DNA of 64,000 bases. It comes from Saccharothrix deserti. GTDB lineage: Bacteria; Actinomycetota; Actinomycetes; Mycobacteriales; Pseudonocardiaceae. The notes under the pieces were generated by a model that worked only from the letters and a program-made list of their open reading frames with translations, did no database searches and had not been told where the DNA came from. The stretch is taken from positions 124,001 to 188,000 of the forward strand of contig NZ_VKAB01000026.1 of NCBI RefSeq assembly GCF_009769385.1, in the 5' to 3' direction. This document shows positions 55,101 through 57,015 of this stretch, piece after piece; position 1 is the stretch's first letter; each line of letters begins with the position of its first letter. Made by a program: the position numbers and the translations under genes.

Positions 55101-55233
55101 CGTGCCACTCCCCTCCTCGACACCGCGATGGTGTCAGAGGGGTACGACAACGGCGGGATGCGTCACCGGCCGCCAGGACCGAGCGGGGTGTCCGATGTGG
55201 ACAGCGGTGCCGGGTCGGGTTCTAATCAGTTCT

Positions 55234-55430
55234 GGGAGTGAGCCATCCGGCAGACTCCTGGTCGGTAGCCGACCGGCAGGTGAGCACTCTCGGGTCCTGG
55301 ACGTCGAGTCCTGTTGAAAGACCGTGCCCCTGCCGGTGGGCCGGGAGAGTTGATCGCTGCTGGGATGTCGTGCCCGCCGCCGGTCGGCGTGAGCACTGCT
55401 TGATTAGGTCGCTGATGGTTCTCCCGCCGG
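55234..55430 (+). ncRNA. Bridge RNA with decoded target and donor loops
   Basis: A 5' hairpin GTCGG-TAG-CCGAC spans 55261-55273. The target loop is closed by CCGGCAGG (55273-55280) with CCTGCCGG (55329-55336) and GCAC with GTGC, and capped by GGAC-GTCC. Its 5' side UCGGGUCCU (55290-55298) matches the left flank TCGGGTTCT (8 of 9). Its 3' side UGUUGAAAG (55312-55320) pairs with the right flank CTTTCAGT (6 Watson-Crick, 2 wobble). The donor loop is closed by CGGGAGA/TCTCCCG (55342, 55420). Its left guide CTGGGATGTC (55360-55369) is identical to the right element end (56712-56721). Its right guide TGATTAG (55401-55407) is complementary to the left end CTAATCA. RNA ends are estimates. Confidence 0.9.
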
Positions 55431-55467
55431 CTGCTGTAGGTGATCGGCATCGGGAACGGGAGGATCG

Positions 55468-56700
55468 TTGCGACTGTTCGTGGGAGACGACTGGGCCGAG
55501 GACCACCACGATGTGGAGGTGATGGACGGCTCGGGTCGCCGGTTGGCCAAGGCCCGTCTGCCCGAGGGCGTGGCGGGGATGGCGCGGCTGCACGCGATGG
55601 TGGGTGAGCTGGTCGGTGACGACGCCGACGCCGACGAGGACGTGGAGGTGCTGGTCGGGATCGAGACCGACCGGGGCCCGTGGGTGGCGGCACTGGTCGC
55701 CGCCGGCTACACGGTGTTGGCGGTCAATCCGTTGCAGGCGGCCAGGTTCCGCGACCGGCTGGGGGTGTCGGGGGCCAAGAGCGACGCCGGTGACGCGCAC
55801 GTGCTGGCCGACATGGTCCGCACCCACGGCCACGAGCTGCGCCCGGTCGCCGGGGACAGCGCCGAGGTCGAGGCGGTCAAGGTGGTGGCCCGCACCCACA
55901 AGACGCTGATCTGGGAACGGACCCGCCACACCCAGCGGCTGCGCCACGCACTGCGCGACTACTTCCCCGCCGCCCTGGTCGCCTTCGAGGACCTGGACGC
56001 CGCCGACACCCTGGAACTGTTGGCCAAGGCTCCCACCCCGGCGAAGGCGGCCCGGCTGACCATTGCGCAGATCGGCGCAGCGCTCAAGCGGGCCCGCCGC
56101 CGCGACGTCGCGGAGAAGGCCGAGCTGGTCCAGGCCGAGCTGCGCGCCGAGCACCTCGGCCAACCCGAGGTCGTCACCACCGCCTACGCCGCCTCGGTCC
56201 AGGCGCTCATCGCGGTCCTGACCGTGCTGAACACCCAGGTCAAGGCCATGCAGGGGCAGGTCGAGGCCCATTTTGGGCGGCACCCGGCCGCTGAGATCGT
56301 GTTGTCCCAGCCCGGCCTGGGACCGATCCTCGGCGCCCGGGTGCTCGCGGAGTTCGGCGACGACCCCGACCGCTACACCACCGCCAAGGCCCGCAAGAAC
56401 TACGCCGGCACCAGCCCGATCACCCGCGCCTCGGGCAGGAAGAAGGTCGCCCTGGCCCGGTTCGTGCACAACGACCGCCTCATCGACGCACTCACGACCC
56501 AGGCGTTCACCGCGCTGCGGCACTCGCCCGGAGCACGCGCCTACTACGACCGGCAGCGAGCCCGCGGCAGCGGCCACAACGCCGCCCTGCGCCAACTCGC
56601 CAACCGACTCGTCGGCATCCTCCACGGCTGCCTCAAAACCGGCACCCGCTACGACGAAGCGACCGCCTGGTCGCATCACGCCGAGAACGTCGCGGCTTGA
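55468..56700 (+). CDS. IS110-family DEDD transposase (RNA-guided recombinase)
   Basis: This 410-residue protein has an N-terminal RuvC-like DEDD domain (LFVGDDWAEDHHDVEV; VLVGIETDRGPW; KSDAGDAHVLADMVR), a helical linker, and a C-terminal Transposase_20 domain with LSQPGLGPILGARVLAEFGD and YAGTSPITRASGRKK. A serine before the PGxG motif fits the catalytic serine known for the family. Start TTG 55468 follows GGGAGG. The stop TGA overlaps the TTGACA half-promoter. The frame is intact, so the element may be active. Confidence 0.95.
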   Translation: MRLFVGDDWAEDHHDVEVMDGSGRRLAKARLPEGVAGMARLHAMVGELVGDDADADEDVEVLVGIETDRGPWVAALVAAGYTVLAVNPLQAARFRDRLGVSGAKSDAGDAHVLADMVRTHGHELRPVAGDSAEVEAVKVVARTHKTLIWERTRHTQRLRHALRDYFPAALVAFEDLDAADTLELLAKAPTPAKAARLTIAQIGAALKRARRRDVAEKAELVQAELRAEHLGQPEVVTTAYAASVQALIAVLTVLNTQVKAMQGQVEAHFGRHPAAEIVLSQPGLGPILGARVLAEFGDDPDRYTTAKARKNYAGTSPITRASGRKKVALARFVHNDRLIDALTTQAFTALRHSPGARAYYDRQRARGSGHNAALRQLANRLVGILHGCLKTGTRYDEATAWSHHAENVAA

Positions 56701-56722
56701 CATCTACGCTCCTGGGATGTCT
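56697..56722 (+). promoter_or_regulatory. Right-end half of a circle-junction promoter
   Basis: TTGACA (56697-56702) is followed by exactly 17 nt and TCT. In the excised circle the next bases are AAT from the left end (55224-55226), giving -10 TCTAAT, five of six to consensus. Start would be near 55233, just upstream of the bridge RNA folds. In the integrated state the halves are 1.5 kb apart. Confidence 0.8.
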
Positions 56723-57015
56723 TTCAGTTCGATGAAGATGCTGTGGGTTCGGGTGGCGCCGGTGTTCTCGCCGGTGTGCTCCTGCGCGCCGAGCCACCGC
56801 ACCTCGCCGGCCGGGAGTTCGACGTCGACCTGACGGCCACCGGCCGACACGCGCCGCTGGAAGCTGCTCAGCGTGACCATGACGCTGTCCGGGTGCCGGT
56901 GCGGGTTGGTCCTGTCACCGGGGTGGTCCCGGTACTCCAGGACACGGACCCTGTCGTTCTCGAAGACCACCTTGTAGAGCCGCGGGTCGGTGACGGCGGG
57001 ATCGTGGCTGTCCAT
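56704..57015 (-). CDS. Small cupin protein with 3' end replaced by IS110
   Basis: This 103-residue single-domain cupin has the metal-type motif HPGDRTNPHRHPDSVMVTLS and a later DVELPAGEVRWLGAQEHTG strand pair. It ends THSIFIELK and then DIPGA, where the last five residues come from the element. Joining the flanks at the CT core gives ELKEPDPAPLSTSDTPLG plus PGGR and a stop at 55163, a 117-residue protein. The fold is probably kept. ATG 57015 follows AGGTGA. It is divergent from a TetR gene. Confidence 0.87.
   Translation of the reverse strand: MDSHDPAVTDPRLYKVVFENDRVRVLEYRDHPGDRTNPHRHPDSVMVTLSSFQRRVSAGGRQVDVELPAGEVRWLGAQEHTGENTGATRTHSIFIELKDIPGA

What the first reader, a model, noticed from the sequence alone, without database searches (positions are those of the whole stretch)
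55222..56722. An IS110 element whose bridge RNA can be fully decoded
The 5' non-coding end folds into two stem-loops with internal loops. Loop 1 matches the left flank (UCGGGUCCU vs TCGGGTTCT, 8 of 9) and pairs with the right flank (UGUUGAAAG with CTTTCAGT, wobbles allowed). Loop 2 is identical to 10 nt of the element's right end (CTGGGATGTC) and complementary to 7 nt of the left end (CTAATCA). All four guide segments point to the same CT core at both junctions. Bridge RNAs are known for IS110 (IS621 work), but this element, its guides and its target look undescribed. Chance agreement of four segments at consistent positions is very unlikely.
Basis: partly seen in the sequence, partly recalled or inferred. 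Interest (0 to 1): 0.95.

Follow-up and report, generated by a model that had tools for sequence, protein, structure and literature searches.

The report
IS110 element with decoded bridge RNA
This is a jumping gene of the known IS110 kind whose built-in guide RNA can be read off the DNA and matches both its own ends and the place where it landed; many of its relatives carry guides that fit the ribosome-landing signals in front of genes, and most of those also keep a second, backward reading frame open through the element.

Summary
Window 55222-56722 is an IS110-group element with recombinase 55468-56700 and CT cores at both ends. For these guides the insertion site is the single best of 5,032 CT sites in the emptied window. 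Removing the element restores a gene tail like those of some relatives, with one CT and no target duplication.

Seven of nine RNA helices show compensatory changes. A promoter spans the circle junction in 54 of 57 left ends.

This is the published bridge-RNA mechanism: a new member of a known kind.

Beyond it: 30 of 64 loops carry guides for Shine-Dalgarno sites (RTG GAAAG); 14 of 38 such targets lie before an ATG-started ORF (1.6 expected). These elements keep an element-long antisense ORF (IS900 'hed'-like) in 24 of 30 loops, others in 6 of 34. The tree-corrected test is inconclusive, and the window copy is not at such a site.

The parts
55215..55223 (+). left target with CT core 55222-55223
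   Evidence: 8 of 9 identity with LTG; best of 5,032 CT sites in the emptied window
55222..55467 (+). left end (LE, 246 nt) encoding the bridge RNA
   Evidence: covarying structure in 41 left ends; ends mapped by sibling copies and the empty site
55222..55228 (+). right-donor sequence, core plus LE tip (CTAATCA)
   Evidence: complementary to RDG; co-varies with RDG
55232..55261 (+). 5' stem-loop of the bridge RNA
   Evidence: 55224-55262 folds at -16.8 kcal/mol, z -2.85; its two helices pair in 100% and 97.5% of cells
55264..55435 (+). outer helix (GGTAGCC 55264-55270 with GGCTGCT 55429-55435) enclosing both loop modules
   Evidence: 94.4% of cells paired, 3 of 7 pairs with changes on both sides
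55273..55336 (+). target-binding stem-loop: CCGGCAGG/CCTGCCGG, GCAC/GTGC, hairpin GGAC-GTCC
   Evidence: the GCAC/GTGC helix hardly varies and gives no covariation
55290..55298 (+). LTG, left target guide
   Evidence: tracks own left flank across siblings
55312..55320 (+). RTG, right target guide
   Evidence: tracks own right flank across siblings
55321..55322 (+). predicted handshake guide AC, complementary to donor GT 56719-56720
   Evidence: read from sequence by analogy with IS621 (PMC11208158, passages); not tested by covariation
55343..55425 (+). donor-binding stem-loop (GGGAGA/TCTCCC; inner hairpin 55370-55396)
   Evidence: closing helix 97.6% of cells paired, 5 of 7 pairs with changes on both sides
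55360..55369 (+). LDG, left donor guide
   Evidence: identical to 56712-56721; little variation, 1 of 20,000 shuffles as high
55401..55407 (+). RDG, right donor guide
   Evidence: complementary to 55222-55228; covariation z 7.7
55468..56700 (+). IS110 recombinase, 410 aa, TTG start; D8, E66, D106, D109, S322
   Evidence: Pfam PF01548 and PF02371; NCBIfam NF033542, 188.5 bits, cut-off 140; PDB IS621 match (its N-terminal part alone is weak, 14.2 bits); residues
56697..56702 (+). -35 box TTGACA; in the circle 17 nt from TCTAAT across the core
   Evidence: junction sequence; 54 of 57 distinct left ends of siblings and window
56712..56722 (+). left-donor sequence and right CT core 56721-56722
   Evidence: identical to LDG; ends mapped
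56721..56728 (+). right target
   Evidence: 8 of 8 with RTG allowing wobble
55222..56703 (-). element-long antisense ORF, 493 aa ('hed'-like); ATG 56701-56703, stop TAG 55222-55224
   Evidence: kept open in most GAAAG-type siblings; no Pfam or NCBIfam match
56709..56713 (-). AGGAG ribosome-binding site of the antisense ORF
   Evidence: present in 26 of 30 GAAAG-type loops, 9 of 34 others
56704..57015 (-). host gene (103 aa as truncated) interrupted at its 3' end
   Evidence: joined flanks restore a tail IELKEP...LGPGGR-stop as in some relatives

Best explanation
It is an apparently intact IS110-group insertion sequence. Excision gives a circle whose junction (RE-CT-LE) forms a promoter, TTGACA-N17-TCTAAT, that transcribes a bridge RNA from the left end. 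The RNA has a 5' stem-loop, a target-binding loop and a donor-binding loop. LTG and RTG pair with opposite strands of a chromosomal target around CT, LDG and RDG with the circle junction around its CT, and the DEDD/serine recombinase exchanges strands at the two cores, leaving the element between two CTs without target duplication. Here it entered the 3' end of a small conserved gene. Shown by sequence: ends, guides, guide-flank covariation, RNA structure, junction promoter motif, empty site, catalytic residues. Inferred from IS621: transcription, RNP formation and catalysis.
For: Domains and residues. Ends from same-genome copies and restored gene. Guides track flanks: 72 elements, 46 loops; then 64 loops from 101 of 140 loci, non-core LTG 4.79 of 7 against 2.59 shuffled, RTG 4.73 of 6 against 2.34, 0 of 20,000 each, and LTG still within the GAAAG class alone (30 loops). 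Own site strictly best among CT sites of its own flanks in 61 of 93 elements, within the top 1% in 81 of 93; window site best of 5,032. Donor guides (40 of 46 loops parsed). Structure: 96.7% of cells paired, 23 of 48 pairs with changes on both sides (shuffled mean 7.4), slid controls 37-47% paired. Junction promoter motif in 54 of 57.
Against: No RNA or activity data. Some copies fit poorly: LTG 1 of 9 in L055 (its left end was not found), 3 in L067, 4 in L075, L101, L102 and L104; RTG 3 of 8 in L108; in 32 of 93 elements another CT site nearby scores as high or higher. Energy folding is weak. LDG varies too little for a strong test (6.95 against 6.81 of 7). Rfam at gathering thresholds reports no bridge RNA here. 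No other full copy in its own genome, so recent mobility in this strain is not shown. The promoter scan demands A at the second place of the -10 box and so could not have seen TCTAAT; it is no control.
Confidence: 0.94

Rival explanations
1. The antisense ORF is a working part of the Shine-Dalgarno-aimed subgroup. Insertion at the ribosome site of a gene leaves SD core and start codon next to the element, whose left tip reads ..ATTAG|GA on the gene's strand. Ribosomes entering at the element's own AGGAG/ATG cross the 1.5 kb insert along the read-through transcript and stop at or near the rebuilt SD, so the target gene stays expressed (an anti-polarity track). This adds to the best explanation rather than replacing it.
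For: Antisense stops inside the recombinase gene, codon-aligned frame: mean 0.08 in 26 GAAAG-type against 1.97 in 31 others; the other two antisense frames do not differ. Full-length ORF (over 85% of the element) 24 of 30 against 6 of 34, AGGAG 26 of 30 against 9 of 34. ATG-started ORF behind the target 14 of 38 against 1.57 expected; 0 of 54 in other guide classes. Fourfold third positions are not clearly more conserved in ORF-open pairs, which argues for translation rather than for a protein.
Against: After correction for descent the association is not shown: seven independent contrasts on supported branches, same direction 2-3, opposite 0-1, rest equal; three with the GAAAG rule, same 1.5-1.8, opposite 0-0.1. 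By duplex energy, 12 of 35 SD-like elements lack the full ORF (L044, L057, L058, L077, L108, L109, L118, L122, L156, L162, L168, L200; L044, L058 and L168 only just) and 2 of 22 others have it (L067, L199). The window copy is not at an SD, and half of the GAAAG-type targets (19 of 38) have no start codon with an ORF at that distance. No expression data.
Confidence: 0.35
2. The antisense ORF encodes a functional protein (Hed).
For: Own ribosome site and start codon, full length in most GAAAG-type elements; IS900 has a comparable ORF called hed (PMC8141618, passages).
Against: No Pfam or NCBIfam match; LE lengths change modulo 3 among siblings, so its C-terminus is not conserved; fourfold third positions of the recombinase not clearly constrained.
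Confidence: 0.1
3. The antisense ORF is a chance result of high G+C, codon bias and common descent.
For: Long antisense frames are common in GC-rich DNA (general knowledge); 6 of 34 other-guide elements also have it; guide type and ORF are clustered on the tree.
Against: Antisense-stop codons 2 against 175 control codons in 26 GAAAG-type, 61 against 170 in 31 others; joint presence of ribosome site and start codon.
Confidence: 0.45
4. The guide-flank agreement is coincidence or common descent of flanks rather than RNA guidance.
For: The core positions match almost everywhere and carry no information; in two sets of copies the flanks themselves are alike.
Against: Non-core positions alone give z 16.5 and 17.5; copies of one element at unrelated sites agree with one guide.
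Confidence: 0.02

Closest known systems
IS621 (IS110 group) and its bridge RNA
   Same: DEDD RuvC plus Tnp domains, CT core, no target duplication, LE-encoded RNA with 5' stem-loop and two internal loops, LTG/RTG/LDG/RDG layout, junction promoter (PMC11208160 sections, PMC11208158 passages; compared)
   Different: Actinobacterial, 410 aa against 328 aa in the PDB chain; distant sequence; different guides; the aligned RNA region of about 215 nt has an outer helix around both modules, whose presence in IS621 I did not check
IS900 of Mycobacterium avium subsp. paratuberculosis
   Same: IS110 family, antisense ORF spanning the element, target motif CATGNNNNNNTCTCCTT (PMC8141618, passages and section 17): the same start-codon/SD context as in GAAAG-type siblings here
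   Different: IS900 hed is reported there without ribosome site or start codon; here both are in the right end. The IS900 sequence was not examined; no paper with both IS900 and bridge RNA was found in the searched library
IS1111-type elements and seekRNA (PMC11187229, passages)
   Same: RNA-guided DEDD transposase
   Different: IS1111 elements mostly encode the RNA in the right end and have longer subterminal inverted repeats (PMC11208160 section 12); here the RNA is in the left end and the right end is 22 nt
IS110-family transposases of Rhodococcus and Streptomyces plasmids
   Same: The best plasmid places cover 92-99% of the element at 76-82% DNA identity (first twelve rows)
   Different: Other guides in the parsed ones, and those lack the full antisense ORF

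Membership tests
IS110 family, IS110 group | PF01548 and PF02371 domains | tested here: met
   NF033542 above cut-off
IS110 family, IS110 group | DEDD residues and conserved serine | tested here: met
   D8, E66, D106, D109, S322 aligned with IS621
IS110 family, IS110 group | no target duplication, core dinucleotide shared by both junctions | tested here: met
IS110 family, IS110 group | long LE, short RE, RNA encoded in LE | tested here: met
   246 nt against 22 nt; RNA structure
IS110 family, IS110 group | promoter rebuilt at the circle junction | tested here: met
   sequence motif only: (54 of 57)
Bridge-RNA systems | two internal loops with guides to target and donor that covary with them | tested here: met
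   weak for LDG
Bridge-RNA systems | RNA expressed, bound by recombinase and required for recombination | not testable with these tools
   needs bench work
IS900-like SD-targeting elements | insertions at SD/start-codon sites | tested here: inconclusive
   enriched for siblings with the same guide type (14 of 38 targets), not met for the window copy
IS900-like SD-targeting elements | element-long antisense ORF | tested here: met
IS1111 group | RNA in the right end | tested here: not met
   right end is 22 nt; guides are in the left end

The most novel reading that the evidence does not exclude
A subgroup of IS110 elements uses its bridge RNA to aim at Shine-Dalgarno sites in general and carries an antisense reading frame, with its own ribosome site and a stop at the rebuilt Shine-Dalgarno, that exists to be translated: it carries ribosomes across the insert so that the target gene stays on. 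Guide choice and reading frame then evolve together, and the frame decays when the guide moves to other targets. This would explain the old riddle of IS900 hed.
Probability: 0.33. Interest if true: 0.78.

Novelty: new member of a known kind. Interest (0 to 1): 0.45.

Why it matters
The element and its siblings give a large, clean replication of bridge-RNA decoding in actinobacteria, with many natural guide-target pairs. If the added reading holds, bridge RNAs can encode a general, low-harm target class (ribosome-binding sites), and an antisense frame can be selected for being translated rather than for its protein, which would make the old IS900 hed observation testable.

Tried and rejected
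Energy folding of the whole left end: weak. Rfam at gathering thresholds: only Ms_AS-4 on the antisense strand of the recombinase gene. Further full copies in the own genome: none, only fragments. Empty site in the same genus: the interrupted gene has no match in the other 24 genus genomes, so the family was used (27 of 346 genomes matched, the own one included). The BLAST used queries cut at the proposed ends, so its sharp starts and ends prove nothing; one search was run to map the ends without that fault. The first structure count used a shifted bracket string and is void (corrected, where 2 of the 50 RNAalifold pairs were left out). Dropped rows: first set 71 of 80 siblings plus the window (L049, L060, L068, L078, L103, L106 not entered; L082, L091, L105 without a right end). 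Expanded set 101 of 140 loci parsed, 24 of the 39 failures for want of the right-end pattern; at least two of the 101 are the same copy fetched twice (L155 as L035, L161 as L043), which the counts over distinct loops or flanks collapse. Donor parsing failed in 6 of 46 loops. The SD class depends on its definition: duplex energy gives more exceptions than the GAAAG rule. The association corrected for descent was inconclusive. The promoter scan could not see the motif in question. The paper behind Ms_AS-4 was not read.

Full report
Observation. The recombinase ORF 55468-56700 matches the two IS110 Pfam domains, the NCBIfam model 'IS110 family RNA-guided transposase' above its cut-off and the IS621 and ISCro4 chains in the PDB; the DEDD residues and the serine are present. 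Eighty sibling loci, the best of 384 relatives, were fetched.

Ends. In eleven sets of same-genome sibling copies the flanks were compared. In nine sets (2 to 11 copies each) identity runs on for only 1-6 nt left and 3-7 nt right of the corresponding CTs, about the reach of the target guides, and 10-40 nt outside it is 0.03-0.57, while the first 40 nt inside are 97-100% identical; the one exception is a pair of M. methanotrophicum copies that lies in a shared context. Two sets (Phytohabitans, Prauserella flavalba) have alike flanks and do not tell. In the window, removal of the element in a script leaves one CT and restores the frame of a minus-strand gene with the tail IELKEPDPAPLSTSDTPLGPGGR-stop. 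Of 13 relatives read on the gene's strand there, seven continue beyond ELK to a tail with a GP motif near its end (for example L134 IELKEPQPAHLTTPIDTIGPTSH, L132 VELKEPRPSGAVAGTALGPGGP), four stop right after ELK and two shortly after it. The insertion therefore shortened that gene.

Guides. In the first set, 72 elements with 46 distinct loops, each element's LTG and RTG were compared with its own and with other elements' flanks: own LTG 6.47 of 9 against 4.39 shuffled, own RTG 6.70 of 8 against 4.48, 0 of 20,000 shuffles. Per position the signal runs from -4 outwards on the left and from +3 to +7 on the right; core positions carry none. In the expanded set, 101 of 140 loci parsed, 64 loops, non-core LTG 4.79 of 7 against 2.59 and RTG 4.73 of 6 against 2.34, 0 of 20,000; the LTG signal also holds inside the GAAAG class alone (4.86 against 3.19, 30 loops). 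Examples: L100 CTCCCGCCCT in both guide and flank; L057 GAATGGTCCT in both; L065 RTG GATCTGAG with flank CTCAGACC; L067 RTG CCGCTAG with flank CTAGCGG. With its own guides, an element's own site is strictly best among CT sites of its flanks in 61 of 93 elements and within the top 1% in 81 of 93. In the window the real site alone reaches its scores among 5,032 CT sites. Poor fits exist: L041, L055 (left end not found), L067 (LTG), L075, L101, L102, L104, L108, L200.

Donor side and promoter. RDG covaries with the left tip (4.80 of 6 against 4.02, 0 of 20,000; 40 of 46 loops parsed); LDG hardly varies (6.95 of 7 against 6.81, 1 of 20,000). The junction reads TTGACA-17-TCTAAT. Of 57 distinct left ends, 55 have a TTGAC-type box in the right end, and 54 of these have TCTAAT (50), CCTAAT (3) or TCCAAT (1) 17 or 18 nt away across the core. 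In the integrated form that place reads TCTTTC.

RNA structure. RNAalifold on 41 left ends gives a 5' stem-loop, a target loop and a donor loop inside an outer helix. With 48 of its 50 pairs, 96.7% of cells pair, 23 pairs show changes on both sides (shuffled mean 7.4), seven of nine helices have such pairs, and slid versions pair 37-47%. Single-sequence folding is weak except for the 5' and target stem-loops (z -2.85 and -2.55). By analogy with IS621 (PMC11208158, passages read) the bases after RTG (AC, 55321-55322) would be a handshake guide for donor GT 56719-56720; this is read from the sequence and was not tested.

Targets. Of 64 loops 30 share RTG GAAAG, among them all 22 rows of the supported clade around the window element; with an LTG ending in TCC plus T or C, as most of them have, the target on the minus strand reads GAAAGGA, a Shine-Dalgarno sequence. 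Among 38 distinct targets of GAAAG-type elements, 14 have an ATG with an ORF of at least 80 codons 5-14 nt downstream (expected 1.57, p 1.6e-10) and 19 have any start (expected 5.82); among 54 targets of other guide types, 0 (expected 1.50) and 8 (expected 7.27). An earlier count on the first set gave 11 of 33 against 1.7. The window copy is an exception: its target lies in the 3' part of a gene. IS900 has the target motif CATGNNNNNNTCTCCTT and an element-long antisense ORF, hed, reported without ribosome site or start codon (PMC8141618, passages and section 17); the 1997 paper on IS900 and translation-initiation signals was seen only as a reference title.

Antisense ORF. The window element has a 493-aa antisense ORF from ATG 56701-56703 to TAG 55222-55224, with AGGAG at 56709-56713. 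Among 64 distinct loops, an antisense ORF over more than 85% of the element is found in 24 of 30 GAAAG-type and 6 of 34 others; AGGAG in 26 of 30 and 9 of 34; in elements with an intact recombinase gene (26 and 31), antisense-stop codons against control codons are 2 to 175 and 61 to 170. Inside the recombinase gene the codon-aligned antisense frame has 0.08 stops in GAAAG-type and 1.97 in others, while the other two antisense frames do not differ (p 0.70 and 0.44). Fourfold third positions are not clearly more conserved in ORF-open pairs (0.59, 0.60, 0.64, 0.63, 0.69 against 0.55, 0.57, 0.57, 0.66, 0.71 by identity class, the last two broken classes with only 9 and 3 pairs). Selection, if real, is then against stops rather than for a protein. 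On a tree of 57 recombinases the SD-like class (by duplex energy) changes nine times, but only seven independent contrasts are supported; the ORF traits go the same way in 2-3 and the opposite way in 0-1, so the association is not established after correction for descent. By that class 12 of 35 SD-like elements lack the full ORF (three of them only just) and 2 of 22 others have it.

Mechanism proposed for this extra layer, inferred: a translated antisense track prevents termination on the read-through transcript and delivers ribosomes to the target gene, whose SD core and start codon are kept beside the left tip. In the window the shortened gene's stop TAG (56704-56706) lies directly before the antisense ATG (56701-56703), so coupling is possible there too.

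Known or new. Bridge RNAs of IS110 elements, their guide layout and their decoding over thousands of elements are published (PMC11208160: abstract, sections 5, 6, 7, 12, 21 and passages; PMC11208158 and PMC11187229: passages). The window element is a new member. Library searches: IS900 with bridge RNA, 0 papers; IS110 with Shine-Dalgarno and insertion sequence, 5 papers, of which one was opened at passages (PMC7823733) and does not make the link there; IS900 with hed gene, 2 papers; a five-term search, 0. PMC12500396 and PMC4109619 were seen at passages. The library holds open-licence papers only, and ISfinder was not available, so absence of the SD link from print is not shown.

Noticed in passing
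window 56307-56388 (-): Rfam family Ms_AS-4 (Actinobacteria antisense sRNA) matches on the antisense strand of the recombinase gene, the strand of the long antisense ORF. It may reflect an antisense transcript in a relative, or only coding similarity.
   Followed up: partly
L004 1501-1577, L005 1501-1538, L012 1501-1547, L015 1501-1553: Short orphan left-end pieces (5' stem-loop region) in this genome (L004, L005) and two others of the genus; L004, L012 and L015 stand just beside a CATG, as if decayed insertions at start-codon sites.
   Followed up: partly
L060, L078, L103: Sibling loci whose left end is split or set apart from the recombinase gene by roughly 0.9-2.2 kb of other DNA, probably later insertions.
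   Followed up: no
L202 (Mycobacterium phage Feyre 32194-37626): A relative (66% identity over 97% of the element) sits in a phage genome near a gene annotated cro.
   Followed up: no
L002, L003 (own genome, contig C7): A decayed IS110 copy, 83% identical over about 390 bp plus a 72-bp piece, in the same genome.
   Followed up: no
L156 against L157: Two copies in one genome: L156 has LTG ..GGCCT, an antisense stop and no AGGAG; L157 has ..GTCCT with the antisense ORF intact.
   Followed up: partly
window 56704-57015 (-): The interrupted gene has no Pfam or NCBIfam match; homologues (E up to 1e-15) occur in 27 of 346 family genomes, own included, and in none of the other 24 genus genomes searched.
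   Followed up: partly
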